A stretch of 64,000 nucleotides of DNA from Tetradesmus obliquus (lineage: Eukaryota > Chlorophyta > Chlorophyceae > Sphaeropleales > Scenedesmaceae), in assembly GCA_030272155.1 (NCBI GenBank), contig CP126191.1, positions 10,597,001 through 10,661,000 on the forward strand, in the 5' to 3' direction. This document shows, piece after piece, positions 1 to 64,000 of the stretch. The translations under genes and the position numbers were made by a program. The number at the start of each line of letters is the position of its first letter. Position 1 is the first letter of the stretch. The notes under the pieces were generated by a model, which saw nothing but the letters and a program-made list of their open reading frames with translations, searched no databases and was not told the DNA's origin.

Positions 1-2823
1 CGCAACCCAACACTGAATGCATGACAGATCACATACCTGAGCAAACAACGACGATCCCCCACCCACAATCAACATGCAAACAAAATCTGCAGCGCTGTGT
101 GTGCAACATGCTGCGCTGCCTCAATGCACCCCACCCGCCCACCTCAGACAGCGCCTCCACTGTGGCCTTGAGGTCTGTCCACAGCCCCGTGAGCGACTCC
201 ACAGTCATGTCAGTGGCGTCGTTGTAGAACAGCGGCTGCGCGTCCAGCTCCTCGCCGCTGCAAACGCATGGGCAGAACGCATGATCAGGAGGAAGAGGGT
301 CAAGGGGTGAGGTGCATGGCAAGGCAACCGCAAGCAGGCGGAGTCGAACACCACCGCTAGCTGGACTTTAGGATTGAAAGCAGTGCCAACTGGCAGTATG
401 ATGAGGCAGGCCCCAGCAGATGAACGGATCAGCATGCATCAAGTGAGCACGTGGTGAGGGCTGGCGGCTGCAGCTGCTTGCTGACGAGGATGCCACTGGT
501 GCTGACGGCGCCGTGCGTAGTGAGATGATCAACATGCCTTGATGCTGTACTACTGTGTTGCCCCTGAACAACATGTAAGCATACTTTTTTCGAGCACACG
601 GCAGCACGCTCTGTCAGTTTGCAGGCTGCACTGCGCCAATTCCTCCTGTGCAGTAGCAATGCCGCTGCCGCTGCTGGTCCACACTCACTTGTAGTCGTGC
701 CAGCGCGCATACATGATGCCCGGGTGCAGGATGGGGTTGCCGGCCAGGTTGAAGGGCAGCAGCGTGGCCTCCATCACATTGTCCTCAAGCACAAAGTTGC
801 TGGCGGGGCACAGCGCATCCAGCTGCAGGCAGGCAGGCAGGCAGCAGAGTGAGTGGCGGGCAGCAGGAGCAGCAGCAGCAGCGTGAGTGTGTTGTCCTCC
901 AGCACAAAGTTGCTGGCAGGGCACAGCGCACCCAGCTGCGGGCAGGCAACAGTGTGTGTGGCAGCAGCAGCAGGGGCAGCAGCATGTTTGTCAGAGAGAG
1001 CGAGATGCATGGCAGCCGTGGCAGCAGCAACTAAGCAAGTGCTTCGTGTGCATTGCAGCTGTCCCTCTCACAAGCTGCCCTTGCCGCACACCACGCACCG
1101 GACCTGTACATTGCTTGTCATGCACGGCCAGCCGTCAAGGTTTCTGGCACAGCCCCTAGCGCTGGCCAGTCACTCCATTGCTAATGATTGCATGCAAGTG
1201 TATTCACTACATCAAGACAACGCACCAGCTGCGTGGCCAGGTATGTGTTCATGGGCCCGTCTGGCGCCACCACGATGAACACGCGGTCCTTGATGCCGCG
1301 GATGTTGACCGTGGCGGGGCCCTCCTTGCGGCACGCCCAGGGCAGCGCCTTGGTGGCCACCACGGTCAGGTTGGCGGCGGCCTCGCCCAGCGCGTTCTGG
1401 AGCAGCAGCATGTTCCAGCCCGAGTTGCCTGCAGGAAAGTTGGATATGTGTACAGCAGGCAGCACGGTCAGATTAGGCAGCAGCCTCGCCCAGCGCGTTG
1501 TTGAGCAGCAGCATGCTCCAGCCCGAGTTGCCTGCAGATGAAGCATTTGTGCAGCATTTGTGCAGCAGTCGGGATGCGACCAGCATTGTGGTGCTGTGGC
1601 AGCGCTGTTGTCGACAGTGCGATAAGGCTTGTGCTGCATGGTAGGCAGCAGCCAGGCAGGAACACCCCCGTCTGCCTGCTCACGTGGAATGCTTGCTGAC
1701 GCCAACAATAACCCAAGCACGCACTGCAGCCAGTCGGCTTCTAGAGTATATTTCACTCGTGCCACTCCAGCCGTGTCAGCTTGACCAGACACGCAGCCAG
1801 CCAAGCACGTGCATGCATCAGCGGCCACTCACCAGGCAGGAACCAGGCACCACTCATGCCACAATTGTATAGGCCGGCAACTGTGTCTCTCAGGCTGTTC
1901 CTGCTGAAGGAGTTGCGTGTCTGACCCCACACAGCCACTCACCAGGCAGGAACACCACCATTTGCCTGCTGAGGTAGGGCGCGATCTCCTCAAACAGCGC
2001 CTCGTGTGCAGTGGCAGGCAGCACCACCACCACCACGTCAGCAGACGGCAGCACCTCTGCAGGGTCACAAGTGATGCGTGCCAGCTTGCCCTGGTAGGTG
2101 TTCTTGCCGATCATGTCATTCACAGTGATGCCGCCGCCGTTGTCCTGGATGTCCTGCCACATCTGCGCGGCGCGCTTCTCGTAGCGCTTGGAGAGGTAGA
2201 TGGACACCTTGGCGGAGAGGCAGCTGAAGAGGCCGGCAGCGCAGCAGGCTGCAGGAGAGGCAGCAGTGGGAACAGCGCCAGCGGCAGCGGCAGCATGGGG
2301 ATACAGTCAGTGGTGAGTTGGGCAGGTCAGGCAGTGCGTAATTGAGGGCCAAGGCAAGCTACAGCAGCTCTGTTATCATCTGTTGTGGGTGATGAAAGAA
2401 GCTGCGGACAGCAGTTGTAAGGTAAGGGCGGTGAGTGTTGCTGGCAGTGGCGGGCAGCTGCTGGTCCAGCACAGCATTGGACCGGGTCCAATGGCACATC
2501 TAGCTGTCAGGCTGGTGCAAGTGGGCAGTGCATGGCAGTACTGGCTGCACTGTTACCTCTGTATGTGCCTACAGCGTGGTACTTGTTGTGATTTGTCCAC
2601 CGCTGCTTGCAGGGAGTGCATGTACAAGGCTGCTACTGCTGAATGCCGCTTGGGAGCTGCTGTGTACTGCTCCTGGCCCCAGTCACCGGGGGTGCGTTGC
2701 CGCTGTCCGGAACTCACCTCCATTTCCGCTGCCGCACACAACAACATTCAGCGCCTTGAGCACATCGTGCCCCGTCTTAGCGTTGCCAGCGAAGGCCGTG
2801 GCACCAGGCATGGTCTCCTGCAT
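1..2823 (-). CDS. Opine dehydrogenase-family NAD(P)-dependent oxidoreductase, 3' end outside window
   Basis: Spliced model on the minus strand, exons 2823-2718, 2248-1943, 1428-1226, 822-689 and 257-143, with the gene continuing past the left edge. Junction phases are consistent and every donor is GTGAG, GTGCG or GTGGG. The N-terminus gives a Rossmann fold: a beta strand NVVVCGSGNGA (GxGxxA/G, residues about 26-36), then SADVVVVVLPATAHEALF and MVVFLPGNSG. The later segment TVVATKALPWACR is characteristic of octopine/nopaline dehydrogenase-like proteins, which reductively couple an amino acid to a 2-oxo acid. About 287 residues are visible; the family usually has about 360-410, so the C-terminal substrate domain is partly missing. 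The start could be Met1 (2823) or Met5 (2811); an in-frame stop lies just upstream. The substrate cannot be assigned. The family call is fairly secure; 'opine' activity is inference. Confidence 0.75.
891..1850 (-). repeat. Copies of exon edges inside opine dehydrogenase introns
   Basis: Four intronic stretches repeat neighbouring exon edges in the same orientation. Positions 891-949 repeat the acceptor and start of exon 4 (real copy about 779-837). Positions 1464-1537 repeat the acceptor and start of exon 3 (real copy 1361-1434, offset 103). Positions 1826-1850 and about 1655-1690 repeat the end of exon 2, encoding FLPG; in the first the GTGAGTGG donor is intact. The copies carry substitutions and lose frame away from the junction, so they look like decayed tandem duplications rather than used exons. 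Confidence 0.8.
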
Positions 2824-7617: not shown

Positions 7618-8035
7618 ATGAATCTCCATGTATCGTTACTACTTCTGGTGACAATTGCAGCCCAGTGCGCTGTGTATGGAGCAGCGGGTGAGAACCGGCA
7701 GTCACTGCTGCTGCTGCTGTTGCTGCTGCTGACTCACATGCTCTGCATCACAGCTACTGGCAGCACAGCAGCCGCCTGCAGCACACATTGGACGTCCCAC
7801 CTCGTGTGCCGGATAGCACAGAGTCATCCTGAGCTTGCTGCACAGCAATCAGTCACCTTTGACACACCACATGCACAGCGTCACCGCATTTGGGATACTG
7901 GCGCAATACGCTTGAATCAAAGATAACCTGAGCCTGGCAGATGGTCAGCTGCACACGCTTGCATAGCCCCTGTAGTTACACACAAGCATCCACCCATACA
8001 CCACCACCAACCAATGCTGATTCACTGCCTGCGTG

Positions 8036-8093
<58 letters not shown>

Positions 8094-11000
8094 TGCAGAG
8101 CGGCGCTACACCTACAACATCCCCAGCGGCCAGCCCCTGGAGAAGACCCCAGGCTACCTCGGCTCGCTGATCCCCATGAAGCAGGTGCCAGAGATCACCA
8201 TCACCCAGGCGCCCGTCACATGGAAGGTGCGCCAGCTGTCCACATGCTTGGATCGGTGTCTTGTCAACATGTGACTGAGCTTGAGCATGTTGCATGACGC
8301 GCACACTTCACCTGCCCTTCGTGGTGCCTGCTGCACTTTCTCGCTCCCCCATTGCAGTTGAGCAATCCCAGTGGCCTGCAGCTGGAGTTCCCGCCCCTAG
8401 CTACCTCACCGGCACCTCCAAGCTGGCCTACGGCTTCAGGCCCACGCTGCCTGTGCCGCCTGACCCATCTCCTGCACACCCCACTCACCCTGCTGCCCCC
8501 CACAAACAATGCCAGCGGCTTGCCAGCCCCCCTTACATTAGCCCCTGGACACCTCACACATGCTTTGTGCTACCTGCCGCACCTCTTGCCGCACTGCAGT
8601 TGAGCGACCCCGGTGGCCTGCAGCTGGAGTTTACTGCCCCCAGCTACCTCACCGGCACCTCCAAGCTACCTTATGCATTCGGGCCCACGCTGCGCCTCAG
8701 GGCGGGTGGCATCATGAAGATCAAGCTTGTGAATGAGATGATCATGGAGGGCAACATCACCGAGGAGGCGCCGCATGCGTTCATGGGGCCGCTGGATACG
8801 AACCTGCACACGCACGGGCTGTGGGATGCCAACGGTGGGTGGGCCCGCTGGCTCTTCACAGCCGTGCTGCATGCTGCGTGGTACGCTTGTGTGTTGCCTG
8901 GCGCATGGCATGTGAGCGGTTTCACATGCACACATAATCCATGTATGCATTGCCACCAGAGCACAAATGGTCGCTGCGCTGCGCATGCTCAGACATGGAT
9001 GACATGTTATGGTGGATAAGGGTTCATTCATGGGGCCGCTTGATACGAATCTGCACACGCACGGTGTGTTGTACGCCAACGGTGGGTGACAGCTGCCCAT
9101 GTATTGCGACATGGCACGTCAGCTTACTGCACTTGCATGGCTTGGATGCTTTCAGGTATGCATGGTAGCATTGCATGGAAAGGCAGCACACAAGCACGGT
9201 CGCTGTTTGAGTCGCATGCGCTCATGGAGCCGCTGGAAACCAACCTGCACATGCACCGCCTGTGGGATGCCAACCGTGAGGGCAGTGGTGTCTTCCAGAT
9301 CCTGCAGTGGGCAGCTGCTACAGAGCAAGGCGGTTGTTGTCCTGCACATGCATGCATCGGCAGCAAAGCAGCCGCGGCGATTGGCAACCCTGCCTTGTGC
9401 TAGATGTAGACGCCGGGTACAGGTACTAGGCAGAGATAGTATGCAATGTCTGATTGTTGCTGTTGCCGTGTACAATTTTGACATGTGCAGGTGTGTACGA
9501 CCAGAACCAGACCTCCTATGCTGGCCAGGACAACATCTTCATCAATGTGCCTGCCAGACAGAAGCCTAGTGACGCGCCAGCCTCACTCGACTTCAGCAGC
9601 AACATCCTGAAGGAGCACCTGCCAGGCATCCACTGGTACCACCCACACAAGTGAGTAGGGCAGGCTGGCCTCAGCAGCAGCGTGCACAGGCTGGGTTGCA
9701 TGCTGAGGTGCTTGAAAGGCAGCAGCCCTACTGCAGCACATTGCTGGCATGCCCCTTCACCGGCCTCAGTAGCAGCTGTAAGGGGCCTGAAAGAGAGCAG
9801 CCCTACTACAACATATTGCTGGCATGCCTCTCCGCTGCTACCACCCACACAGGTGAGGCTCCTGCTATGCACAATCTTGCATCGGCTAGGTCAAGTGCTA
9901 GGGTAACGTAACTGGGTGAGAGTGCTTGCAGCAGCCCTCCTGTGGCACATTGTCAGCATGTTGTTAGTGTTTTTTTAAGGTGCAGCATGGACATGCTGAG
10001 GTACCTTTGCTTGTTGTCCTGCGCACTGCTTGCAAAGCAATGCTGCTTCTAATGCTGCTGCTGCTGCTGCTGCTGAACTCTGCAACTGCTGCTGCAGGCA
10101 CGGCAGCACCACCATCCAGACCAGCACATCCCATGGATCCATCATCATTGGTGAGCAAGCAGCCCGCACACAGCCCATGTGCAAATATGGACAGTCTTAG
10201 CATGAAAAATGCAAATCTGCACACCTTCAAGAAGTGATTGTCCAGGAGACCCCCTGCCCAAGGTCCCCCAGCACTCCCAGTGGGCCATGTGTGACGTGTA
10301 CCGCCTCTCTGGCTCACTGTGCGGTGCTACTATCAGATGGTGCCACCACTGGACTTGATGTTTCACAGCATGGACAGCGTCCCTAGCAAGCATGACAGTG
10401 AACAAGTTGTCTGCCCGCCTTGCTGCCACTGCGCTGCCCCTGCAGAGGACGACCCTTGTCTGAATCAAGTCACTCGTAACCCACTGGTTGCCCCACCTTG
10501 CTGCACATGCGCTGCCTGCCTGCAGAGGACCACCCCTGTTTGAACCAATACAATATATAACCAGGAAACCAACTCGAATAACCCGCTGGTTGCCCCACCT
10601 TGCTGCATGCCTGCAAAGGACCACCCATGTCTGAACGGATAAGATATAACTAGTAACCACCTTGAGTAACCCGCTGGTTGACACCAACTGCAACAAGCAT
10701 TCTTATGCTTACACCCTTATGGTTGCCCCACCTTGCTGCGCCTGTGCTGCCTGCCTGCAGAGAACGACCCCTGTTTGAGCCAGTGAAGGTTATAACTAGC
10801 AACCAACTGTGCTGTCTGCCTGCCTGCAGAGGACGACCCCTTCTGGCTGCCAGCCAGGCGTGGCCTGTGCGGCCCCATGCAGGCGCTGATCAGCACAGCC
10901 CCTGAGGTGCTGCTGGACATCAGCCTGCTGTTCTTCAAGCTGGCCTCCAACCCGGCCAAGGTGTGGGACTCGCCCACCTACCAGCTCGTCAGCAACTACT

Positions 11001-11862
11001 CAAGCCCTCAGGTGAGCCTGGGATACCAGGCCTGTCCCTGTCCTTCTTCAACTTACGCGTGAAAGAGCATAGGCTCAAGCAGGCTTGCCTGCTTTTGATG
11101 CGTAGGACTTGTGACTTGTAACAATCAGGTGAGGCTGCTCACAACATAACGTCACGTCAACACCCAGCTGTTGCAGCGTAAACACATGACGTCACGTCAA
11201 CATCCAGTTGTGGCAGCGTCAAGTTAGGAGGGGTATGGTTGGCATTGCATTTGTGCGTGCCGGCGCGTGCTCCATACGCCAGCCCCACAGTGAGGAGGCT
11301 CAGGCGCTGCTTGCTTGCACGCAATGCACTTGCTTGAAGCATTGTCACGGCAGCCTACACCTGCTGGGCAAAACAAACGATTTGGGTCGTACATATGCCG
11401 AGTGCTGCTGCCGCCGCCATACATAATGGGATGCTGCGCTGCTGACTGCAGAACCCGCTGTGCTGCGAGAGCAAGAACGGCTGGGTGTTTGGCGGCTCCA
11501 TGACCAAGGGCAACGGCACTGACATCCTGCTGGTCAGCGGCGCTTACAAGGTGAGCAGCACAGCACAGCACAGCACAGCAAACCACACAACCTTACTTGG
11601 GCTATGTAACGACTTGTGCCATGCTATCAGGAGCATGGTGCTGCCAGCAGCAGCGGGTGTCAGCGCTGGCAGCGCCATTGGTTGCATCAGCGGCAGCAGC
11701 AGCAGCAGCAGCAGCGGCTGTTAGCTCTGGCAGTGCCATTGGCAGCAGCGGCAGCAGCAACAGCAGCAGCAACAGCAGCGGCTGTCAGCTCTGGCAGCGC
11801 CATTGGCTGCAGCGGCAGCAGCAGCGGCGGCGGCGGCGGCAGCGGCAGCAGCAGCGGCAGCG

Positions 11863-11894
<32 letters not shown>

Positions 11895-13304
11895 GACTGT
11901 CAGCTCTGGCGGCGCCATTGGCAACAGCAGTGGCAGCAGCAGCAGCGACTGTAAGCTCTGGCAGCGCCATTGGCAACAGCAGCGGCAGCAGCCGTAGCGG
12001 CTGTCAGCTCTGGCAGCGGCATTGCCTGCAGCAGCTTGCAGCAGTAGCAGCAGCAGCAGCAGCAGCGACTGTCAGCTCTGGCAGTGCCATTGCCTGCATC
12101 AGCTTGTAGCAGCAGCACCTCAGCAGAAAGCTGCACAAGCCGCACAAGGAAGCTGCACTGCACAGCACAGTGTAGAGCAAAAGCACACATGTAACCATCC
12201 TCTCTCAGTGTAGAGCAAAAGCATGTTTATTTGGTCACTTGATGCCAAAAGCGAGCTGCATCTTGGCAGGGGTCACAGGTGCTTAAAGATCACGCTACGT
12301 GAGGCGCGCAACGCATCTGCTGCTGCTGCTGCTGCCGCAGCCCGTGATCACCATGGCTGATGGCGTGTGGTACCGCTGGCGCATGCTGTACAGCGGCGCC
12401 AAGGGCTGGTCCACCTTCCGCTTCCTGGACACGGCCATGGCCAACAGCAAGCAGTGCGAGTGGCTGCTGATCGCCAAGGATGGTGAGCAGCCACAGCGCG
12501 TGCCAGCTGGCGAATGTAAACAGGCAGATCTTGGGCCTCGTGTTGGGCTGTGCTGGCAGCTGACATGGGCAGCCACAGGTGTCTGAAAACACACATGTCA
12601 CAAAACTAGTGGCTGCTGATTGCCAGGGATGGCTGGTTGATCTGTCATGCTAGCAGCAGCCTGGGCAGTCAGAGTGTCTACACGCATCCCACATTGTATT
12701 GAATCGGAAGGTGTGTATGCTGGTTTGCCTGTGCGGCAGAGCAAAGAGGCAACGTGCAGCCTTTGAAGGAACAGCGTTTACTCAGAACAAATATTATACT
12801 AGCATGAACGCTAGACCGCGCAGCAGCACGTTGATGCTCATGAGATGAGGTTACCTCCTCTGCAACCCACTTGCCGTGCAATCATTGCTGCTGCTCGTGC
12901 CGCTCACCGACGCTGTCATGCCCCTGCTGCCGTGCTGTGTTGCGGCCCTCGCCACCGCCGCTGCAGGCGTGTACTTGATGAACATTCCCCGCAAGGTGGA
13001 GGCAGTGCTGATGTCGTCAGGTGCGCGGTGATGTGCTGGCAAATTATTGACCTAGTCTTTTCCTTGACATTACCAAGCACCGCAAAAAAACAGCCGCAAG
13101 GCACAACAGCTTGTCTCAGACATAAATGATTCACAATGCAGCGTGCGTGCGCTTGAAGCAAACAGTCCAGCACATAGGCCCGCTGCAGATGCCGCTGCTG
13201 CACTGGCTCTATGATCACCCGTGGGCTGCAAAAAAGGCCAAGTAGTGTGTTGCTAGCACCACTAGCTGCTGCGCCTGCTGCTCCCATGTTGCCGCTTCAA
13301 GCGC

Positions 13305-13350
<46 letters not shown>

Positions 13351-15444
13351 AGGCAACCGCCTGGAGGCCATGGTGCGCTGCAGCCTTCCATCCCGCTCCA
13401 GCAGCAACGAGTTCATCCTGTCGGCCACCGTCACCAACGACCCCTTCAACCCCGGAAACAACCAGACATTTGCGACGGACTTCTTCCGTGTGGCGCAGGA
13501 CGAGGTGGCGCGCATCAAAGTGGTGGTGAGGCCGCTGCTGGCCTGCAAAGCTAAAATAACATAAATAACATAGATAACATAGTGCTGGCGCTTTTCAGCT
13601 GGCATGGCACAAGGCATCACTTAGTGCACCCACTCAACCTGTGCGCCACCAGACAACCGCCTGCACAGCCCGTTTCCGTCCGTGGCTGATTTTCGGCTGC
13701 ATGCCTGACAAACCGAGCCTGAAAATTGTCAGTGTTTAGTCAGGGTGCAGTCCTTGCTCACAGCACAACCCGCGCTCCTTCTACAGCATCAAATCACACA
13801 AACAGGCTTCTGCGGCTGCTGCGCAATGTCGCCGCACCCATCCCAGAGTCAGACATGTCACAGTGTCTGAATTACAGCTGGTCACAGGAGGCGCCTGTGC
13901 CGCACACATACAGCGTCCGCGCCTGTGCCGCACACACATAGCGTCCGCGCCTGACACCAAGTGTTGCTGGCTGCTTGTTATGCTGCTGCAGAGGCGTCCA
14001 GGCTCGAAGGGCCAGCACATCAATAAGGCTGCAAAGTACGCGGCTGAGCAAGCTACCAAGGACACCCAGGCAGCACCAGCAGCAGCAGCAGCAGGCGCTG
14101 ACGCCGAGGTGGATGTTGCTGCTGTTGACCCCGCACACTTCTACAGCAAGCCACCCAAATGGGACAGCAGGTTTTACAGGAACCCCGTGCCGGACTCCTG
14201 CACGCCGCTGCGCCCCAGCTATGCAGTAGACATGCGCGACGCTGCGCTGACAGCTGCCGGCTACCCGCCGTCCCGTGTGAACAACACCGACGTAAACTTT
14301 GCTGGCTATAACAACGCAGACGGACTCGGCACCACCTGCACAGTCAACGGTCAACTGTTTTCCTTCCCTGACCCGAGCCCGCTGGTGCTGCCGATGGGCG
14401 AGATCGTGCAGTGGACGACGAACAACGGCCGCTCGCACCCCTTCCACGTGCACACGCAGCCCTTCCAGCTGACCAGGTTCAACCTGTCCAACCAGTTGAT
14501 CGGCACTGAGCTGACAAACTTCTTCCAGGTGAGCAAACACACGTACAAAATAACTCAGGCTTGAAATTAAAAGCTCCTAAACTTTCAATACAATGCGTTC
14601 AGCTTGCACAGGATATTGGGTGAGCAGCCGGGGAACCGGGCTGGGTGCGTTGTAACCAGTTGCAGGAAGTACATTTTGCAGTAGCTGCATTAATATGCTC
14701 ACTGGGCTGAGCTGAGATGAGATGAGATGAGCCGTTGCTGAGCTGAGCTGTTGCTAAGCTGAGCTGAGCTGAGCTGACGTGTGGCGGCCGCTGATCTTCC
14801 GTGCCTGCCTGCAGGTTGGGGACTTCACCGACACCATGCTCATCCCGCAGATCAGCATCGGCGCCGGCTCGGTGCAGATGCGCTTCCAGCCGGGGCCCTT
14901 CTCAGGCTATGCGGTCATGCACTGGTGAGATGCTGCTGCCTGGTGATGCAGCAGCAGCAGCATCTGCCTCCTGCCCAGCCTGGTGCACAGCTTGCTGCTG
15001 CAGCACCCCTGCACAGGCACAGGTGGACACAAGCCAGTGGCAGTTGTGAAACACACATGGTCAGTGGCCACAACACGCTGCAGCGCATGCACAGCCAACA
15101 CACCTGCCTGATGCATCACACCTGATGTATCACCAATTCAACGGCATGCTGTCCAAGGCAGGCTGCAGCGCATGCACAGCCAACTCAACTGCCTGATGTA
15201 TCACACCTGATTTATCACCGATAGAAACGCATATGCACGCTGTCCCAGGCAGGCAGATGTAACAAGCAGCAGCTTGCTGGCATGTAAATAGGACGATGCT
15301 AAGCATGGTAAAAGCATGTGCTGTGACACAGCCCTCTCTTGACCACGGGGTCTGTGCGGAGCACGTGCCCAGGCACACGCCAGCCATCCACGCATGCCCT
15401 TCATATACATGCCGCGATGCTGCAACTGTGGCCTGAACGCCTTG

Positions 15445-15477
<33 letters not shown>

Positions 15478-21839: not shown

Positions 21840-21890
<51 letters not shown>

Positions 21891-29226: not shown

Positions 29227-29257
<31 letters not shown>

Positions 29258-44014: not shown

Positions 44015-44053
<39 letters not shown>

Positions 44054-45497: not shown

Positions 45498-45542
<45 letters not shown>

Positions 45543-49914: not shown

Positions 49915-49945
<31 letters not shown>

Positions 49946-50355: not shown

Positions 50356-50393
<38 letters not shown>

Positions 50394-50541
50394 GCAGCGC
50401 TGCATGTTGAATTTGAGAAGAGCTGGGCAGTGCATAGCATCAACTCCTGCTTTATTTGACTAACCAGCGATGCCTTCAGGCTTACTCAGCAGGCTGCAGC
50501 TGCTCTCGTAGCAATGGTATGCTTATAAGTATAGCTGACCC

Positions 50542-50594
<53 letters not shown>

Positions 50595-53500
50595 CTGCAG
50601 AGCTGAAGCCGGGCTTCTTCATGCGCTCGCTTAGCGTGCCCCTGGCAGTGCCCTGCCCCAACGGCAGCTACAACGCCGGCAACAACCGCGTGTATGGCTG
50701 CACAAAGTGTGCCGCAGACCATGTCACGACTGACGGCCCACAGAAAACGTCAGCAGCTGACTGTAGGAGTGAGTGCCTGGACCATTGCTTTCAGCAAGTG
50801 ATGCCAGCCCAAACTGTGCTTGATAGCCCGTGCATTGCACAACCAGTGCCCTCACGTACTATCACTTTGGAGCTGCATGCACTGATGTGTGGGCACTGTT
50901 TCCTCACTGAGTGCTGCACTGTTGCCAAATGCTGCTGCTTGCTGCGCCATTCTCTGTTCGCTGTGCAGTTCTGGAGCGCGGCTACGAGGCCAAAACAGTT
51001 GCCGGCAGCGGCGAGATAACAGAGGCGCAGCCGTGCCGGTTGAACGCCTGGTGCCCCGGCAACGTGGCTGCCCCAGGCTGGACAAAGTGCCCTGCCAAGA
51101 AGTGGACCAGAGCAGCAGGCAGCTACTCGGAGCAGCAGTGCCGTGAGTATGCTGTCTCTTGCTGCTGCCGCACACACGTGCACAATCTCTTTTCAACAAA
51201 CAGCCGAAGCATGTAAAGTTGTGTCTATGTTGCTGTGGCCAGGGACTGTACTTGGCTGTGCTATGCGCTGTTGAACATGTTACAGATGAGAACAATTATG
51301 ATTCTCAGTATGATACTGATCAAGCTGTCACACTGCTGCCGCTGTCTGCCTGTCTGCCTCCCTTTCTGCCTGCCAGTTGTACCGCCGGGTTACTACCTAC
51401 CGGATGGTGGCGGCGACATCCAGCAGTGCGCCACCGGAGCTAATGGCACTTACAAGGCAGGCTGGGGCCCAGCAAGAGGTGAGCAATGAAGCCTGTAGTC
51501 TAACCAGATAAACTCTGCACCCACATCAAGTGCGCGCATTACAGGGTATTCAACAGTAGCCCATGCTGCAGTTGTGTTGCGCTGTTCATGCACGTTGTTG
51601 CACAAACACCACCTGTGCCAAATCAGAACTGGCACGCCAGGCTGAGGCTGGTGCAATCACAACGCATGATGCTCTGCAATCGCCAGTTTGAAACCCCAGA
51701 GTGCTGCCGCACAGCTTTGATCTCACACCCAGCTGATATGCTTGTGCCTTTTGACACTGTCTGAACCTGCTGCCTGCAGCCTGCACGCTGTGCAACTCCA
51801 GCATTCCCTACAGCATCCTCCCAGTGCCTCTCTGCCGTCGTTCTTGAAACATCCGGACAACAACATCCGCCAATTCCTGCCCAACGCCTGCAGCCTGCAT
51901 GCCTTGCGTCTCAGGCATCTTCTGCTGCATCTTCACAGTCCCTCCACTCTGTCACACACTCTGTTATGACATAACACCGACACTGATCTGCTGTGTCTAC
52001 TTGCTGCCTGCAGCCTGCACGCCGTGTGGCTCTGGCATCTTCTCAGGCGGCAACGGCAGCGCTGACGTGTTCGACCCTGACACACAGACCACCGTCACGA
52101 CAGCACTCGCTGTCAACGCCAGCGCATGCTGTGAGTTGCGCCCGGCTTAGCATGGCAGCATCATTGCAAGCTTGCCAGCATTCTGATGCCTCACAGCGGA
52201 GCTTGCATTGTACATGGGTGCTGCTTTGCCGCTTGCATCCGTCTTGCTGCTTAATTAACGTAGTAACATGCAGCTGCCCAACTGAGCTTGCTGCCCCACC
52301 AGGGTTGATGCGTGCCCTGGGGTCGACTGTCGTGCACTCCTCGCTGCTGTTCTGGGCCGCAGTCGTGCACCCAGGCATGCCCATGCAGCGCGCACTGCAG
52401 CCGCTGCACTGCGCTTGCAGCCCCAGATGTTTAGCAAATACGGATCTGAGCGCGCACCCGCCTGCTCTGTTTGTCCTGCCGCAGTCGTGTATCCCGGCAT
52501 GGGCATGCAGCGAGCTCTCAAGATGGTCAAGGACTACTACGGCTGCTCCCAGCTCTAGGGCCTTTTTCACCCAATTCATTTTTAGATCTAAGATGTACCC
52601 CTGTTTGTCCTGCCGCAGTCGTGTATCTCAGCATGGGCATGCAGCGAGCTCTCAAGATGGTCAAGGACTACTATGATACTTGCAGCTCTAGGGCCTGTTT
52701 ATACTTGATTCATGCTGAATCTAAGTATGCATCCCTGCCTGTTTTGCTGCAGTCGTGTACCCAGGCATGGGCATGCAGCGAGCCCTGAAGATGGTCAAGG
52801 ACTACTACGGCTACGCAGGCAGCGTCTGCAGGCGCAACACAGGCATCAACAGCGGCAGCAACTTTGGCCGCACCAGCGTCATGCGTGGCCTAGTGGTGGC
52901 GCCATGCATGCGCTGCGCTGGTGTGCCGTACGGGGCCTACAACGAGACAGGCGGCTATACTGGGTGTGGTGAGTGCTTTTCTCCAGTCTTCCCTGCACAC
53001 CTTTGGTTGCAAATGACTTGAGAGATCTGTTGTGTGCCGTACGAGGGCCTATGATGCGACAGGCAGCTATACTGGCTGCGGTGAGTGTATATCTGCTGCC
53101 ATCCCGGCACATTTTTCTGGCGGCAATGACTCTCCTGCAGTAATGCGCACAGCACTGCGGATAAGAATTGAGCTGCTATTGACCTTGACACTCAAACAGC
53201 CACCTCACTGCCGCCGCCGCCGCTGCCACTGCTGCCGCTCTGTCTGTCGCCGCAGCACTACCAGAGGGATATGCCGCGGTCAGTGTCGGTGGCAGCATCA
53301 TCTACACCACCACTGCCTTCTCATGGGCTCGCGTGCGCACTGTCACGCCCTGCCCCAAGGGCTGGTGGTGTGTTGGCGGGGACCCCTCCCGCAATGCAAC
53401 AGCCAAGCCAGTGCAGTGCCCTGACGGCTTGACAACAGCAGCAGCAGGCGCCATCAGTGCGGCAGCGTGCACGTCCTCAAGTGGGTGGCTCTGCAATTTT

Positions 53501-55570
53501 AAAGCTCTGCAGCGATGCGATTTGCAGTTCTGCTGTTTATTCGGAGAGCTCTACAGTGAAAAGTGCTAGAGTATCCTGTTCTCGCAGTTCCATAGTGTGA
53601 CAGGTGTGCTGCCCATGGTCATGTCACCATGTGTGCTTGCAGTTGCTCACTCCACCATGCTCAGCGTCCTTATGATTGCTGACAACGCTTGCTGTCTTTG
53701 CTGCTGCTGTGTTGCCGCCTTTTGCCTCATGCCGCACTTGCTGTCCTGTGCAGTGTGTGAAGCATCAAACAGCGAGTGGCAGCAAGCCTCCAGCTCATGC
53801 ATCTGCTCAGCAGGCTACGTGCCAGCAATTGGCACTAGCTACGCCCTAGGCAACCTCACATGCGAGCCCTGTGCTGCTGGCACTGCAGCAGCAGCAAACG
53901 AGGCTGTATGTGCTGCATGTGGGGGCAATACATACAGTGCAGCAGCAGCAGGGGCTTGCGTCAGCTGCCCTGGGAGCACTGTGGCAAACACTGGACATAC
54001 AGCTTGCGAGTGCCCCGCAGGATATGCACCTGCCGGTGAGCTTCTTATGATGGATCTCTAGAGATGTTCTGCTGCGTCACGACTTGCAGGAGCGCATTGA
54101 CTGGCAGTGCTTTGCACATCTACTGGCTAGTGAATTGAGTGCCAAACAGACTGAGAGCGACGCTGCTGCAGCAAAGTGCACTGTAGCACCTGGGGTTGCA
54201 TGCTTGCTAGGGTAGCTGCGGTAGCGCATCAGCAGTGCCACTGATCTCTGTCTCTGAAAAGTGCCTTCAAAGCTATTCTAACCTGTTTGCCGCACTGCTG
54301 TGCCGCATTCATGCCTGCAGAGTCGACTAGCTGGGCCAATGGCAACCTCACATGTTCCGCTTGCAGCGCTGGCACATACGCAGCAGCAGGATCCCCCAGC
54401 TGCAGCAACTGCGCTGCAGGCACCTACAGCAGCAGCGCAGCAAGCAACTGCACAGCCTGCAGCAGCAGCCAGTACAGCAGCAGCGCTGCATCTACATGCA
54501 GCGACTGCCCTGCTAATGCCGCAGCGATTAGCAGCAATACAGCTTGTGCCTGCAATGCTGGACATGCACCTGCAGCAGACACCAGCTGGGCCAGCGGCAA
54601 CCTGACATGTTCTACTTGCAGCGCTGGCACATACGCAGCAGCAGGAGCCTCAACCTGCAGCAGCTGCGCAGCAGGAACTTACAGCAGCAGCACAGCAAGC
54701 AACTGCACAGCCTGCAGCGGCAACCAGTACAGTGGCGATGCGGCGTCAACGTGCAGCGACTGCCCGAACAATGCACTCGCAATCAGCAGCAACACAGCCT
54801 GCGCTTGCAGTGCTGGATTTGCACCTGCAGCAGACACCAGCTGGGCCAGTGGCAACCTTAGCTGTGTAGCATGTACTGGTGACAGCTACACCGCTGCTGC
54901 GGGGACCACATGCAGCAGCTGCCCAGCCAACTCAACAGTGAACGCCCAGCACACCAGCTGCAGCTGCAACACTGGATGCCAAGCGGCCGGCACTTTCCCA
55001 AGCCTGACCTGCTCAGCATGGTAGGTTTCTGCATGGCTGTAGGTGTTGTATTGCATTGCTCACATAACAGTGGCAATGCAGCAGTGCACATTGAAGGGGT
55101 AGAGCTCTGCTTCTGCTTGCATAGATGCACAGTAACACACAGCTGGCACTTGCCAAGCAACCAAAAACCTTCTTAATGATGCTTTCTGTCGTTCACCTGC
55201 TGCTTTTCCTTGCTGCTGCAGCGACTATGAGCCAAATGCTCCCTCTGCGCTTGCCGCTGGCGCCACCAATCCCAGCAGCATCAGCGTAACTTTCAACACC
55301 AACAATGCCGGCATTGTGGGGCCCAAGGTCGCAGCCACTTTCGAGCTGCGCTGCTTTCTTGCGGCCAGGACTGCGACCTGCGCTACTGCCAGCCCTGATG
55401 CTGTGGCTTCTGTGACAGCCGACACTGCAGCCACACAGAGCATCAGCATCAGCAGTGGCCTGCCAGGCACTGATGCGTTGTATGGCTGCTTTGTGGTGGC
55501 ATTCAACAGCTATGCAGCTGGCGGTGTGTGCTCTGGCAGCAGCGTACAGGTGACTAAGCCAGCAGCATAG
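47680..55570 (+). CDS. Secreted cysteine-rich modular (ephrin-receptor/TNFR-like repeat) protein
   Basis: Thirteen exons: 47680-47776, 48086-48382, 49174-49350, 49639-49818, 50601-50768, 50969-51142, 51377-51478, 52014-52130, 52753-52968, 53256-53480, 53754-54035, 54321-55020, 55222-55570; about 1027 residues. A hydrophobic signal (AYAVLLLVTLLGSTVVSG) is followed by a Thr/Ser/Arg low-complexity stretch. Then come many short cysteine-rich modules of the type CxPGYY...CxxC, CPxNxY...CxxC and CSAGTYAAAG...C, resembling GCC2/GCC3 (ephrin-receptor-like) and TNFR-type repeats. Exon 12 carries two full 85-residue repeats and part of a third. The C-terminal exon encodes a beta-rich, FnIII-like region. 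No C-terminal membrane helix is seen, so it is probably secreted or wall-associated. Introns 1-11 are all phase 1. The function is unknown; adhesion or matrix roles are inference. Confidence 0.78.
48500..48745 (+). repeat. Minisatellite in cysteine-rich gene intron 2
   Basis: About eight units of 30-33 bases, GCAGCAGTAGCTGTCAGTCT GTGACAGC with variants, form a higher-order alternation of two unit types. It lies between exon 2 (ends 48382) and exon 3 (starts 49174). Spacing and lack of conserved repeat/spacer organisation exclude CRISPR. Confidence 0.92.
49048..49070 (+). repeat. Copy of acceptor plus exon 3 start (cysteine-rich gene)
   Basis: GGCTGCAGGCTGCAGGCCG at about 49049 repeats the double-CTGCAG acceptor and first bases of exon 3 (CGCTGCAGGCTGCAGGCCGG at 49167). 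Confidence 0.6.
49916..50236 (+). repeat. Two copies of the exon 4 end with donor and flanking CAG runs
   Basis: The exon 4 end (encoding GGFMTDPNALPAPGSLF, real end 49818) is repeated at about 49959-50035 and 50159-50236. Each ends GCCTGCA then a GT donor (GTGACT, GTGAGT). The copies are separated by (CAG)8-9 runs. A GTGCATGCACAGTAGGCC-type intron segment is duplicated along with them, and a partial third intron copy follows. Confidence 0.95.
50543..50593 (+). repeat. (CTG)n run at cysteine-rich gene intron 4 acceptor
   Basis: About 16 CTG units end in CCCTGCAG, the exon 5 acceptor. Confidence 0.92.
51768..51925 (+). repeat. Two copies of acceptor plus exon 8 start (cysteine-rich gene)
   Basis: CTGCCTGCAGCCTGCACGCT GTG at about 51771 and GCCTGCAGCCTGCATGCCTT G at about 51889 repeat the exon 8 acceptor and start (CTGCCTGCAGCCTGCACGCC GTG, exon start 52014). 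The second copy also keeps CTCAGGCATCTTCT. Confidence 0.88.
52362..52700 (+). repeat. Three copies of acceptor plus exon 9 start (cysteine-rich gene)
   Basis: The exon 9 acceptor and start (GCAGTCGTGTACCCAGGCAT GGGCATGCAG..., exon start 52753, encoding VYPGMGMQRALKMVKDYYG) recurs at about 52365, 52483 and 52616. The last two retain over 60 bases, including the KMVKDYY codons. Each is followed by an AGCTCTAGGGCC-type stretch, which introduces an in-frame TAG. Confidence 0.95.
53033..53090 (+). repeat. Copy of the exon 9 end with donor (cysteine-rich gene)
   Basis: GTGTGCCGTACGAGGGCCTA followed by GACAGGCAGCTATACTGGCT GCG and GTGAGTG repeats the exon 9 end (encoding GVPYGAYNETGGYTGCG, real end 52968) about 112 bases downstream. 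Confidence 0.92.
54321..54940 (+). repeat. In-frame 255-bp coding repeats in exon 12
   Basis: Two nearly complete 85-residue units and a partial third (start GACACCAGCTGGGCCAGCGG-like at about 54585 and 54834). Unlike the intronic copies, these stay in frame and are translated as cysteine-rich modules. Confidence 0.9.
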
Positions 55571-55700
55571 TAGGATGCTCAAGGGGCGGCACAGTCTGTG
55601 TGCATTCAACAGCTATGCAGCTGGCGGTGTGTGCTCTGGCAGCAGTGTGCAGGTGGCTAAGCCAGCAGCAGCGTAGGATGCTCAAGGGCTGGCACACATT
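55497..55700 (+). repeat. Tandem copy of the terminal exon end including the stop codon
   Basis: From GCATTCAACAGCTATGCAGC through the stop codon and AGGATGCTCAAGGG (55498-55588), the sequence is repeated at about 55602-55692. The copy also ends in GCAGCAGCGTAG. The first stop (55570) ends translation, so the second copy is in the 3' UTR. Confidence 0.95.
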
Positions 55701-58674: not shown

Positions 58675-59334
58675 TCAGGTGACTTCATGTGATAGCCTGC
58701 GCTGCGCAGCCTGCTGGCCAGCATGGGGAGTGACTGCTGCGCAGCAGACACAGTGTATCAGTGCATGCACTGGTTGTGGGGAGTGTGCTGTCCCTGCAGC
58801 GACATTGCTGAGCACCTGGTGCTGCAGAAACGCTTAACAGAGGTTGTAACCATATCTTGCGGACACTGTTACGCATCCAAACTCTGTGTCAACATCCAAC
58901 TATATAGATATATATATATCCACATCAAGTGGAGTCTGAGTCAGTTACACATCGATCAGGTTACAACAGCATGCCAGTGTTCCCAAACACCGTCCACGCA
59001 AGGATCCAACCCTCCATCCCTTTACCAGAAAGCCAACCTGGCTGCTTCAAAAGCATTCAGCACCGTGCACAACTGCGCAGCCAGCCACCTCACTGCAAAT
59101 CTGCTCAACGGCATGCCCTTGCCTGGCCTAGCCCATCAGCACATTGGCATGGCGGCCTGCCGCTTATGCTGCACTGGCAGCCCACTCCATCTATGATCAA
59201 GCCATCTCCTGCGCTGCAGCAGCAGCCCGCCTTGTGCATAGCCAGGCTACCTCCGTGCTGCACTGACCATCCAATCGGTCCATTATGCACAGCCAGACTT
59301 CCTGTGCTGCTGTGCAACACTGCCGCCACGCCAT

Positions 59335-59565
59335 CTCCGCCAAGGCCTCACACAAGCCCTCCCGGCCCAGCTGCGCTGGCTTGCCGGCCGTGCTACGGCT
59401 GGCGCCACATGCACTGCTGCTGCATCTCCGCCAAAGCCTCACAGCAGGCCCTCCCCGCCCAGCTGCGCTGGCTTGCTGGCTGTTCTTCGGCTGCCGCCAC
59501 GTGCCACATGCACTGCTGCTGCATCTCCAGCAAAGCCTCACAGCAAGCCCTCCCCGCCCACCTGC
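59335..59565 (-). repeat. Copies of the last-exon end of the Abraxas-like gene
   Basis: Plus-strand CCTCACAGCAAGCCCTCCCC GCCCACCTGCACTGG (about 59534-59568) recurs as CCTCACAGCAGGCCCTCCCC GCCCAGCTGCGCTGG near 59438 and CCTCACACAAGCCCTCCCGG CCCAGCTGCGCTGG near 59346. The CATGCACTGCTGCTGCATCT CC segment is shared as well. Confidence 0.88.
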
Positions 59566-61448
59566 ACTGGCAAAGGCTTGGCGGCTGCCTGCGGCCCTGC
59601 CAGCAGCTGCTCCTGCAGCGCCTGGTTGCTGGCTCGTAGAGCATCCAGCCGCGACTGCTTCGCCGCCACCTGCAGCACGCACACGCGAGCCATCAACGTG
59701 CAAGTACGGAGTGAACATTGCAGGAGGCTAACTGACCTGTAAGTACCTGTAGGCACCTTCTCAATCGTGCATATGTTGCGGGACTTGTGATAATGCCAAA
59801 TTGCACTGCTGCTGACTTCTTCATGCTGAACCTTTGTATGGATCATCAATTGATAGTTGATAACATGACGAACGCTGTGATTGCAACCCGCCCCACCTGC
59901 GCAGCAGCCACCTGCAGCTCATCCAGCAGGCTGCCGTACAGCCCCTGCACCGCCTGCAGTGCCCCATCAGCCTGCGCTGCTGCTGCAGCCTGCAGCGCCG
60001 CCACCTGCTGCGGACCCAGCAGCGCTGCTGAGCCCTGCTGCTGCTGCTGCTGCTGCTGCAGCACAGCCGCCAGCGCTGGCAGCGTCGCAGAGCCCCACTT
60101 GTTGCTGCTGCTGCTGCTGCCAGAGCTGCTGCTGGGCCCGGAGCTTGCTGCAGCTGCTGCTGCTGCCTGGCCCGCACCCAAGTTGTGCACTGCCAAGTCA
60201 AGCGGCTGCAGCAGCGGGTGCGCTGGGCCTTGCCTGTTGCTGCTGTGGCCGAAGCCACTGCTACTGCCGAAGCCGCTGCTACTGCCGAAGCCGCTGCTGG
60301 TCCAGGCAGCGGCACGGCTGCTGTCGCTGCTGCTGCCAGCATCCTTCACTTTGTAGAACTTGTACTGCAATGACACTGTGGCAGTGTTGTGATCGGGCTG
60401 GCTGGTGATTAGGCCAAACATGATGGGCTGCTGACTGCTGCTGCTGTTTGCCCGCCAATCCTGCAGCTTCCTGCAAACTGCTGCTTCTCGCATCGATGGG
60501 TGGCAGGGGGTCCCAGGCCGGTAGCTGAACCAGCCAAGCAGCTGCTGCTGGGGATGACTGCTGCTGCTGCTTTCAGTGCTGGCTGTGCTGCTGGAGTTGG
60601 CACGCTGCAGCAGCTGGTCAAGCTGGTCACCTGAGGCAGATGTAGCAATTTCATAGGCAGCTGCGTCAGCTTTGGAGCAATGGCAGTGTTTCAGTAACGA
60701 ATGTGAACACCGTAGCCCACGCTATGCTGACCTTGGCATATCAGCTGGCACTTTGAAAGGGACTGAACCAGCTATGAGGGGACACAGGGCACCAGTATCT
60801 GCACAAATTGCACAGCTTCCAGGACTCCCTACCTGCTATGTCCCCAGTGTTCGTGTAGAATGATTGCATGCTGGTGCAGCAGCAGCTTGCGGCGATGCGG
60901 CCCTCATGCTGCTCCACAAGCAAGGCATCTGGCAAACAACACGCAGCAACAGCAGCAGCAAGCACGGGAAGTCGGCAATAAGCAAATCACAAATCGGAGT
61001 AGCCACAGTGGCTGCCTGATCAGGCTTGATCTGCACCGCTGGATGGCTTGCAGCTGGGTTCTAGCATCTGCAAAAGCTGCCATGGCAGTGTGGCCACACT
61101 GTGCGTACGGCAGCAAGCATGCTCAGCAGGAGCAACACAACGCCGTCATCTGCTGATATCCTGCAGTGTAAGTTGACTTCAGGACTCCAGCTGCTTCCCA
61201 TACCTGCTGAGTCGTGTGCTTGCGTGGTCTGGGTGGTGCACACGCTGCCTGCAGGCACAAGCAAGCAACATCAGCAGGAAGATAGATAAGATCCCCTCCC
61301 TACTTCACGAACGCTGCTGTTAATACCTCAATGATGTAGTTTGTTCGTAACACTCACCAAACAGCAGTCCATCGCAGGGGCTGCCGTTGGTCAGCAAGGA
61401 ATGCAGCAGTGCTGCTAGTGTGGGACCAGCGATAGTCAAGCTATCCAT
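59538..61448 (-). CDS. Abraxas/FAM175-like MPN-minus protein (BRISC-type deubiquitinase scaffold)
   Basis: Five exons on the minus strand: 61448-61358, 61248-61204, 60928-60833, 60660-59897 and 59669-59538; about 375 residues. The N-terminus MDSLTIAGPTLAALLHSLLT followed by GSPCDGLLFG matches the first strand of MPN domains of the Abraxas family. LLGWFSYRPGTPCHPSMREA corresponds to the family's LGWYRxRR...SxRE segment. PIMFGLITSQPDHNTATVSL and QYKFYKV follow as expected. A Ser/Gly/Gln-rich insertion precedes a C-terminal coiled coil (VAAKQSRLDALRASNQALQE). No JAMM zinc motif is seen, as in MPN-minus scaffolds that hold BRCC36. The exon 4 end could instead be 59912, and the last exon is read through a possible donor to a stop at 59538; both are uncertain. 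Divergent from the TBC gene. Confidence 0.62.
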
Positions 61449-61886: not shown

Positions 61887-64000
61887 ATGGTTTCCCATGC
61901 GCTACGTCTGGATGGCAGCAATGCTGGACAGCCAGGCAGTGCTGGCCAGCTCAGCAGCAGCCATGAGCAACTGCCACTGCTGTCCCAGGCGCCATGTGAT
62001 GCTGGCTTCACAGCAGTTGCCAGGTAATCCTACTTACACAAGTACATAGCGTTGTATTAAGTTCAGCCTATGCTAGCTGCGCAAGCACGAGGCATCCCAC
62101 ACTGCTGTGCAGCGAGCTCAGGCTGCGCTGCAAATGCTGCTGGGCTCTTCCGCCTGTAGTCTACAATGCACCGCAAGCATAGGCATGACCGATGTTGTTG
62201 CCACGTTTCATGCATTGCGCCTTTGATTCAAGCAGGGAGGCGAGCTGTGTGCACCAGGGCCTGTGCGCTCAGCTAGTACACCCGCCAGCGCCAGCGTCAG
62301 CTGCTCGGACATCCAGCAGCAGCAGCAGCGGTGACAGCAGCAGTGGTGCACAGCTGCAGAAGCTGACTCCTGCTGACGGTGCAGCCCCAGCCGCTCCAGG
62401 CACCAGCAGCAGCTGCTGCAGCAGCCAACAAGGCAGTCCAGCTGCGCCACGCACCTGCAGCAATGCTGGTGGTGCAGCAGCAGCAGCAGCCGCTGCCTTC
62501 GGCAGTGCAGGGGGCCGGGCTGCTGGCCATCAGGCCAGCAGTGCCGGTGATGCTGGCAGCTATGCAGAAGAGTATGAAGAGGATGAAGATTGCTGGGCCA
62601 GTGGTAGTCATGCAAGCAGCAGCGACACGTTCTCTGAAGTAGGGGACCCAGCAGCAACAGAGGTAGGTGGAGCGAAGGTCAGGCAGCAGGCCAGGTGCAC
62701 TGCCACTGACAAGGTTGCTGTGCATGCCCAACAGGTGCAGGCCTACAATCACTTGGCGCACAGCAAGCGGCACGCCTTGTTTTGAAAACGTCCTTGAACC
62801 CTAGTATCTGAAGCTGCAGCAGTGCCCACTTTGACCGCAAGGCCTCAACCCACCCTCGCCTGCTGCTGCTGCTGCTGCTGATGCTGATGCTGATGCTGAT
62901 GCTGCCTTGCCCCCTACCTCAGGTGGTGTATGTGCGCGAGGGAGTTGCAGTGTGGCCCAGCCACAGCCGGCGCATCCTGGGGCGGCTCAGCTTGGTGAAA
63001 CAGCATGCAGTGCTGTTCATGGCTTGGCTGCCATACAGCGCGCCACCTGCAGCAGCAGCAGCAGCAGCAGCAGTGCAAGCGCAGCCTCTGGCACATGCAG
63101 CAGCGACAGCCGGCAGCAGCACAGGCAGCGTGGCAGATGTACAACAGCAGCAGCGACAGCGGAACCGGGGGCATTCACAAGAACACCAAGGGGAACAGCA
63201 CATAGCACAGCATGAACAGGTTGAGCAGCAGCAGCAGCAGCAGCAGCAGTGTACAGCTCATGCAGAGCAGCAGTATGATGTAGACGGTGCCCTGCAGGGC
63301 TGTGAGGAAGAAGCCTCGCAGCCTGACAGCAGCTGGCTGGAGCAGCAGCGGCAGCAGCAGGAGCAAGACACAGACAGGTTCAGCCTGCCTGTGCCGCTGG
63401 CAACACCACGGCAGCAGCAGCAGCAGCAGCAGCATGGACCAGCCAGTCCTACAGCTGCTGCTGCCATTACATCAGCAGCAGCTGCTGCCCGTACCTCTGC
63501 ACCAGGTACCAGCAACAGCTGCAGCTCAATACTGGGCAGCAGCAGCAGCAGCAGCAGTGCTGATACTGGCCGCAGCTTGTATGCCATCCACCCCATCCCT
63601 CTGTCAGATGTGAAAGCCCTAGTCAAGCACACACCACCACTAGGGGTGCACCAGCTGACAGTTGTCCTCACCAGCGGCCTCACTCTGCCTCCGTTACACT
63701 TCCACAACGGCGGCCTACGCGAGCTCATTGAAGCGCTGCGCCAGCACAGCAGCCTGGTCAAAGCAGCGGGCGTTAGTAACACATACCTGGTCAACGACAC
63801 AGCTGACCCACTGCAGCGTTGCTTACTGGCATTGGATGTGGCAGATATCGTGCTAGGGGCGCCGCCGCCAGGCGCTAGCTGTGTGGCTGCACCAGTGGGG
63901 CTTGAGGTACAACTGCAAAATGAGGATGCATTTGCTGATGGAGGAGTGATGGGCTGGCAGGCAGTCGACAGTGCAGCAGCAGCAGCAGCAGCAGCAGATG
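61887..64000 (+). CDS. Rab GTPase-activating TBC protein (GYP7/TBC1D15-like), 5' part
   Basis: Exons 61887-62023, 62236-62662 and 62923 to beyond the right edge; phases agree. The first roughly 185 residues are Ser/Ala/Gly-rich with an acidic patch (YAEEYEEDEDCW). The third exon opens with the N-terminal Rab-binding domain found in GYP7/TBC1D15 proteins: VVYVREGVAVWPSHSRRILG, then RLSLVKQHAVLFMAWLPYS. A Gln/Ala/Ser insertion of about 175 residues (63042-63570, largely CAG-encoded) interrupts it. The second half then reads LYAIHPIPLSDVKALVKHTP, LTLPPLHFHNGGLRELIEAL and TYLVNDTADPLQRCLLALDV. The catalytic TBC domain with Arg and Gln fingers should lie beyond the window. The likely role is switching off a Rab GTPase in membrane traffic. 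Confidence 0.85.

What the first reader, a model, noticed from the sequence alone, without database searches (positions are those of the whole stretch)
1..64000. 'Splice-junction echoes': introns across the window carry tandem copies of neighbouring exon edges with their splice sites
In at least ten of thirteen genes I see short direct copies (about 20-130 bp) of an exon edge plus its splice site inside the adjoining intron. I count roughly 25 donor-side copies, always downstream of the true exon end, and roughly 15 acceptor-side copies, always upstream of the true exon start. They occur on both strands, always in gene sense. Many keep a usable GTGAG or CAG site and some coding sequence, but decay and shift frame away from the junction. 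This suggests a genome-wide process of tandem duplication across exon/intron boundaries that lengthens introns and leaves arrays of decoy or alternative splice sites. I do not know of a described system of this density.
Basis: partly seen in the sequence, partly recalled or inferred. Interest (0 to 1): 0.9.

Follow-up and report, generated by a model that had tools for sequence, protein, structure and literature searches.

The report
Exon-edge duplicates inside algal introns
In this green alga, introns often contain old, same-direction copies of the neighbouring exon edge and its splice site, apparently left by a short-range duplication process with a typical step of about 115 bases, so the genome records how introns grow.

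Summary
The pattern is real. The window lies in Tetradesmus obliquus contig C1. Exon-edge probes match their own intron in sense in 37 of 392 cases, but 0 of 392 antisense and 0 of 392 in other genes' introns. Donor copies lie only downstream and acceptor copies only upstream (24 and 17 of 201; wrong side 0 and 0). Three protein-backed genes (30 introns) fix true junctions; those proteins use only the exon-proximal site. Junction-spanning families occur in 9 of 17 other stretches tested.

Best explanation: short-range duplication, offset mostly 90-150 bp, followed by selection that keeps the surplus copy on the intron side. It is not confined to junctions. Introns born by AGGT duplication (0 of 261) and an introner family are not supported.

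Three features exceed that model: junction excess over geometric nulls (not significant in protein-backed genes alone), copies shorter than their offset, and divergence biased to synonymous sites. Use of copied splice sites is untested. New variant of a known kind.

The parts
7618..15615 (+). Protein-backed gene, multicopper oxidase, 13 exons / 12 introns
   Evidence: P0057 aligns 683 of 693 residues; Cu-oxidase_2
42502..45769 (+). Protein-backed gene, 7 exons / 6 introns (homologues named TPR proteins)
   Evidence: P0001 aligns 309 of 309; homologue names
47680..55567 (+). Protein-backed gene, ephrin-receptor-like cysteine-rich protein, 13 exons / 12 introns
   Evidence: P0086 aligns 1001 of 1025
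779..984 (-). Repeat family spanning an HMM splice junction
   Evidence: Offset 113, 81% identity
1358..1537 (-). Acceptor edge (1358-1434) and intronic copy (1460-1537)
   Evidence: Offset 102, 90%
8317..8450 (+). Intronic copy of the acceptor edge 8563-8693 (true exon starts 8600)
   Evidence: Offset 246, 81%
9027..9278 (+). Two intronic copies (9027-9088, 9213-9278) of the donor edge 8772-8841 (exon ends 8834)
   Evidence: 88-89%
10414..10841 (+). Array of repeats in the intron before the exon at 10830; acceptor-edge copies at 10742-10772 and 10512-10537
20661..20856 (-). Repeat family spanning an HMM junction in the amine oxidase gene
   Evidence: Offset 131, 80%
30078..30285 (+). Acceptor edge 30194-30285 (HMM exon from 30212) and intronic copy 30078-30169
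   Evidence: Offset 116, 89%
32894..33870 (+). Donor-edge array: exon end at 32979 and five intronic copies (donors at 33128, 33258, 33388, 33535, 33665, zero-based)
   Evidence: HMM junction, GDSL-lipase gene
34188..34357 (+). Donor edge 34188-34224 (exon end 34217) and copy 34321-34357
   Evidence: Offset 133, 89%; the collapsed HMM took the copy for the exon
40464..41617 (-). Three families spanning HMM junctions (40464-40719, 41061-41222, 41417-41617)
43335..43533 (+). Intronic copy of the donor edge 43128-43317 (exon ends 43163)
   Evidence: Offset 207, 77%
44423..44572 (+). Intronic copies of the donor edge 44315-44367 (exon ends 44359); 44520-44572 is 92% identical
49752..50387 (+). Donor edge (exon ends 49818) and two intronic copies, step about 205
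51758..52043 (+). Acceptor edge (exon from 52014) and upstream copies 51758-51792 and 51886-51923
52356..52812 (+). Acceptor edge (exon from 52753) and three upstream intronic copies
52921..53111 (+). Donor edge (exon ends 52968) and downstream copy 53032-53111
   Evidence: Offset 111, 80%
54314..54927 (+). Exception: 255-bp duplication across an acceptor, extra copy inside the exon and in frame
55499..55696 (+). Exception: duplication across the stop codon
   Evidence: Offset 103, 93%
59332..59571 (-). Repeat family spanning an HMM junction
9706..9831 (+). Intron-interior duplication, no junction
15074..15254 (+). Intron-interior duplication, no junction
26646..26905 (.). Duplication classed as intergenic

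Best explanation
Introns of Tetradesmus obliquus are lengthened by a frequent, short-range, same-orientation duplication process with an offset of mostly 90-150 bp (mode about 115 bp), most likely error-prone repair or template switching at nearby nicks or breaks. If the duplicated piece spans a splice junction, the protein survives only when the exon-proximal site stays in use, so surviving surplus copies lie in the intron, in sense: downstream of donors and upstream of acceptors. The exon copy is held by selection, which keeps the pair recognisable, while the surplus copy decays. Shown: local, direct, one-sided, widespread, gene-specific, introns with copies longer. Inferred: the repair step and the selective sieve. 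Not shown: any use of the copied sites.
For: Direct against inverted pairs 48:0 under 1 kb, 50:1 in the window and 98:7 in 17 stretches. Own intron in sense 37 of 392, controls 0 of 392 and 0 of 392. Wrong side 0 of 201 twice. Offsets: 52 of 72 families up to 300 bp at 90-150; 47 of 97 in an independent ungapped scan. The same size range occurs in exon, intron and junction classes. Exceptions fit the sieve: in-frame 255-bp exonic copy; exon-interior offsets multiples of three in 12 of 22. Protein models use the outer site. A review reports that tandem, partly tandem and non-tandem local duplications of 10-1000 bp arise by inaccurate break repair in rice (PMC7407515, passage).
Against: Junction families exceed random placement (47:13 vs 21.1:20.7; 25:6 vs 0.65-0.90:1), more so in pairs of 86% identity or more (18:2) than below 80% (16:6). 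Intergenic families are fewer than expected (4 vs 13.2). Adjacent duplication predicts matches under 0.6 of the offset in 0.3-7.5% or 2-18% of cases; observed 16 of 38 and 14 of 29. Nonsynonymous change is lower than a neutral copy predicts (ratio 0.32, bootstrap 0.23-0.44, expected 0.5 or more).
Confidence: 0.62

Rival explanations
1. Junction-linked copying: exon edges with their splice site are preferred substrates, for example through splicing-coupled DNA damage or exon-linked chromatin.
For: Junction excess with equal detectability, also with exons masked and grouped by family (25:6). Many matches end within 12 bp of the splice site on the intron side: 9 of 29 against 6.5-18% in simulation.
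Against: In protein-backed genes 5:3 on the masked count, not significant. The masked scan before grouping gave 21 touching to 18 not touching. Most junctions rest on my HMM, which had 23 of 33 known exons exactly. Exonic and intergenic families exist.
Confidence: 0.2
2. Unequal recombination between diverged haplotypes: the two copies come from different alleles, so exons are alike and introns differ from birth.
For: Differences fall mainly at synonymous sites; exon parts match while flanking intron parts often do not.
Against: No haplotype or second-strain DNA was available. Where the intron part does align it differs about as much as synonymous sites (0.16-0.20). Three spacers are single-copy.
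Confidence: 0.08
3. Functional copies: the intronic edges are kept as alternative, decoy or regulatory splice sites.
For: GT or AG kept in 63 of 68; nonsynonymous ratio 0.32 for exon-copy and 0.37 for copy-copy pairs.
Against: Restricting to deep intron matches, core positions differ in 5 of 100 where about 8 are expected. Copy-copy ratio is not significantly under 0.5 (P=0.096). Frame not kept. Protein models skip the copies.
Confidence: 0.07
4. Assembly artefact, or an inserted mobile family (introner).
For: Repeats are a common place for assembly error (general knowledge).
Against: Copies are 67-100% alike, most well below identity, with about 20% synonymous and intron divergence. Probes hit 0 of 392 introns of other genes. 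Three spacers found only themselves in the genome (that search skips very common words).
Confidence: 0.03

Closest known systems
Intron gain by tandem duplication across an intron-exon boundary in a potato RdRp gene (PMC4974935; abstract and passages)
   Same: A tandem duplication crosses an intron-exon boundary and carries splice signals with it
   Different: One recent case that made a new intron; here there are many families, and in the three protein-backed genes no new intron
Tandem genomic duplication of an AGGT segment (PMC3443670; passages); Gao and Lynch 2009 and Hellsten 2011 seen only as references
   Same: Tandem duplication inside genes that doubles splice signals
   Different: The birth signature (offset equal to intron length, donor copy aligned to acceptor copy) is absent, 0 of 261 introns
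Local duplications by inaccurate double-strand-break repair in rice (Vaughn and Bennetzen 2014, not held; summarised in PMC7407515, passage)
   Same: Direct, local, tandem or partly tandem duplications
   Different: Here offsets cluster near 115 bp and copies are linked to splice junctions
Novel Drosophila intron positions by sliding or tandem duplication (PMC2891723; abstract, and section 10)
   Same: Duplicated proto-splice sites; selection against duplications that touch exons
   Different: Few cases, with the duplication footprint lost; that paper cites a 367-nt median for duplications in fly lines, against about 115 bp here

Membership tests
Short local tandem duplication (error-prone repair type) | Direct orientation and short distance | tested here: met
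   48:0; 50:1 and 98:7
Short local tandem duplication (error-prone repair type) | Copies directly adjacent (match about as long as offset) | tested here: inconclusive
   Met in long arrays; matches under 0.6 of the offset in 16 of 38 families and 14 of 29 junction pairs
Short local tandem duplication (error-prone repair type) | Microhomology or filler at breakpoints | not tested
   Copies are mostly too old for exact breakpoints
Intron birth by AGGT tandem duplication | Offset equals intron length; upstream exon end repeated at the intron 3' end | tested here: not met
   0 of 261 introns
Introner or transposon-derived intron sequence | Similar sequence at unrelated loci | tested here: not met
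   0 of 392 in other genes' introns, one intron tried per probe; three of the spacers searched, self only
Duplication across an intron-exon boundary (potato type) | Duplicated unit crosses a splice junction | tested here: met
   52 of 78 families, 10 of 14 in protein-backed genes
Duplication across an intron-exon boundary (potato type) | A new intron is created | tested here: not met
   In three protein-backed genes the copies lie within one existing intron
Alternative splice sites | Copied sites are used in RNA | not testable with these tools
   Only protein-level evidence: P0001, P0057 and P0086 use the outer sites

The most novel reading that the evidence does not exclude
Splice junctions themselves are hotspots: a splicing- or exon-linked process copies exon edges with their splice sites into the adjoining intron at a step of about 115 bp, and the copies stay under partial protein-like or splice-site constraint, for example because they serve as splicing landing sites or because the functional junction moves among copies over time.
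Probability: 0.2. Interest if true: 0.85.

Novelty: new variant of a known kind. Interest (0 to 1): 0.55.

Why it matters
How introns lengthen and how duplicate splice sites arise is mostly inferred from single cases. Here 52 junction-spanning families were found in about 234 kb; if that sample is representative, the genome would hold some twenty thousand (extrapolation, not a count). The mutational step, the selective sieve and the fate of competing splice sites would become testable by statistics in one genome. The copies also mislead gene finders: mine called several of them exons, so annotations of such genomes may contain false exons.

Tried and rejected
HMM without a minimum intron length drifted to tiny exons and was discarded. 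The first spliced-alignment run failed after one gene and was repeated. Low complexity as the reason for few intron-interior families: rejected, because simulated duplications are found in 0.96-0.99 of cases in exon, intron, intergenic and junction positions at 8-16% divergence. I suspected that BLAST hides offsets under 50 (recalled), so an ungapped scan was run. A clean synonymous/nonsynonymous comparison for pairs with both copies exonic returned no pairs. Assembly error, introners and AGGT birth: see rivals and membership tests.

Rows dropped: L001-L003 never analysed; L009 all N; L006 and L011 (repeat-rich) left out of gene tests; 10 events lost because the retained copy was removed by a later collapse; offsets over 300 bp left out, over 700. 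P0087 gave a poorer model (684 of 710) and was not used. Pfam was asked about 9 window proteins, 6 of them above the curated cut-off for a family, and about 8 of the 13 sampled genes printed, all 8 above cut-off for their best family. In one search the intergenic label failed, so its 18 'interior' entries include non-genic ones and copies of copies; one search regrouped them.

Papers: search listings, passages, one abstract and one section. Gao and Lynch 2009 and Vaughn and Bennetzen 2014 are not held. I saw no report of this pattern in Tetradesmus or Scenedesmus in the listings, which show only the top papers of a library that lacks most subscription journals.
Full report
WHERE. The window is G000:C1:10597001-10661000 in a genome of 104.66 Mb and 17 contigs. 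P0001, named OEZ86_012297 of Tetradesmus obliquus, sits on a contig of 11,144,458 bases, the length of C1. That it is a nuclear chromosome of a green alga follows from the name and the intron-rich genes.

IS IT THERE. Window self-comparison gives 48 direct and 0 inverted pairs nearer than 1 kb. Of 20 stretches of 10 kb at preset places, one is all N and two are repeat-rich. The other 17 give 98 direct to 7 inverted pairs, the window 50 to 1, the two repeat-rich stretches 88 to 20. Window plus 17 stretches hold 79 families.

TRUE JUNCTIONS. I wrote an HMM gene finder and a spliced protein aligner. Three window genes have proteins from the database: P0001 aligns 309 of 309 residues over 7 exons; P0057 683 of 693 over 13 exons; P0086 1001 of 1025 over 13 exons. 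P0057's longest source contig is 3,984 bases, shorter than the 8-kb gene, so it probably comes from a spliced transcript (inference). These 30 introns rest on evidence outside my gene finder. The HMM had 23 of those 33 exons exactly right (by eye) and took some copies for exons, so results resting on it alone are weaker. Pfam: 6 of 9 window predictions reach a curated cut-off; 8 of 8 sampled predictions do, of 13 printed.

CONTROLS. Probes of 30 exon + 12 intron bases find a copy in their own intron in sense for 10 of 55 protein-backed and 27 of 337 HMM junctions; antisense 0 of 392, another gene's intron 0 of 392, exon-interior probes 1 of 124. Donor probes hit the downstream intron in 24 of 201 and the upstream one in 0; acceptor probes hit the upstream intron in 17 of 201 and the downstream one in 0. 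Introns with copies are longer: 484 vs 260.5 bp in all, 578.5 vs 320.5 in protein-backed genes (p=0.0068). A longer intron is also a larger target, but the antisense control is zero.

WHAT SIZE. Of 72 families with offsets up to 300 bp, 52 lie at 90-150 bp and 27 at 105-125. An ungapped scan of offsets 12-300 gives 97 families: 47 at 90-150 and 16 below 75, many of them low-complexity or minisatellite. Exon, intron and junction classes share the size range, so I take it for a property of the mutational step.

WHY ONE-SIDED. A duplication across a donor leaves the first donor and a second one downstream; the protein survives only if the first is used. For an acceptor it is the mirror image. The placement is expected without any special process. 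Exceptions fit: a 255-bp duplication across an acceptor with both copies coding is a multiple of three (54314-54927), exon-interior offsets are multiples of three in 12 of 22, and one event spans a stop codon (55499-55696).

ARE JUNCTIONS SPECIAL. I removed surplus copies in silico, predicted genes on the collapsed sequence and placed units of the same size at random. Junction to intron-interior families: 47 to 13, expected 21.1 to 20.7 (p=1.3e-5); at 86% identity or more 18 to 2; below 80% 16 to 6 (p=0.087). Intergenic families: 4, expected 13.2. Detection is about equal across classes. Since an exon copy keeps a pair visible longer, I repeated detection with exons masked: grouped by family, 25 junction and 6 interior families are visible by their intron part alone, where simulation expects 0.65-0.90 to 1 (p=1.5e-4 or less). 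Ungrouped, the masked scan gives 21 touching an exon to 18 not touching, with 2 across an exon. In protein-backed genes the counts are 5 to 3 masked and 10 to 3 unmasked; I do not count these as significant. A modest junction excess is likely but not proven.

NOT ALL ARE PLAIN TANDEM COPIES. Simulated adjacent duplications leave a match under 0.6 of the offset in 0.3-7.5% of cases, or 2-18% with larger indels. Observed: 16 of 38 and 14 of 29. Three spacers searched are found only at their own place. Flanks show some residual similarity, 3 of 19 left and 4 of 19 right at p<0.05; read with gene strand all seven lie on the intron side, and no exon-side flank is below 0.1. That fits a unit whose intron part has decayed, or a partly tandem insertion as reported for rice (PMC7407515).

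ARE THE COPIES FUNCTIONAL. GT is kept in 31 of 34 donor copies and AG in 32 of 34 acceptor copies, but those alignments had to cross the junction. With at least 20 bp of intron match, core positions differ in 5 of 100 where a neutral copy predicts about 8: no clear constraint. Frame is not kept: indels in multiples of three 3 of 16 and 7 of 20. Yet exon and nearest copy differ mainly at synonymous sites: N 81 vs 270 expected at the intron rate, S 90 vs 95, ratio 0.32, junction bootstrap 0.23-0.44. A neutral copy of a conserved exon is expected at 0.5 or more (P=0.005, 39 junctions). Copy against copy: 0.37, CI 0.25-0.60, P=0.096, 15 junctions. In protein-backed junctions: 0.21 (9) and 0.47 (6). 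Indels are also rarer in exon-derived parts (20 of 2630 vs 74 of 2657 sites), but an indel near the end of a short match may cut the match off. In the GDSL array (HMM junction) two of five copies keep LGIIFLGVKDSLTPAVS exactly and the other three differ by one substitution or a short insertion, while codons change; two carry a stop just upstream. Possible causes: birth from diverged haplotypes, partial constraint, or an ascertainment effect I have not recognised. I cannot choose.

A CLEAN EXAMPLE OUTSIDE THE WINDOW. In a gene with the EMG1/NEP1 domain (E=3.7e-60) the intron L021 3798-4299 holds a donor copy (3889-3951) and an acceptor copy (4182-4225). The donor copy carries a stop where the exon has a lysine codon.

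KNOWN OR NEW. Duplication across a boundary is known from single cases, and tandem duplication as a route of intron gain (PMC4974935, PMC3443670, PMC2891723). The AGGT birth signature is absent, 0 of 261. New here, as far as the searches named above show, are the frequency in one alga, the offset near 115 bp, the possible junction excess and the synonymous bias.

Noticed in passing
54321-55020: The OEZ85 protein P0087 lacks most of the repeat region that P0086 and this genome encode, perhaps a gene-model error caused by the in-frame repeats.
   Followed up: no
48505-48748: A 29-bp minisatellite array of about 8 copies in an intron, unrelated to a splice junction.
   Followed up: no
L018:1-10000: Extremely dense in local duplications: collapsing repeats shortens the 10 kb to 5,872 bases, with 23 events.
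   Followed up: partly
L006 and L011, whole: Repeat-rich stretches of lower GC (0.49, 0.48) with many direct and inverted pairs; not the same phenomenon, possibly satellite or transposon DNA.
   Followed up: no
window, many places such as 21841-21898 and 8038-8092: Very frequent CAG/CTG triplet runs in exons and introns.
   Followed up: no
P0011 (Scenedesmus sp. NREL 46B-D3): This predicted protein departs from its relatives right after a conserved exon end (GKM), as if the model read on into an intron.
   Followed up: no
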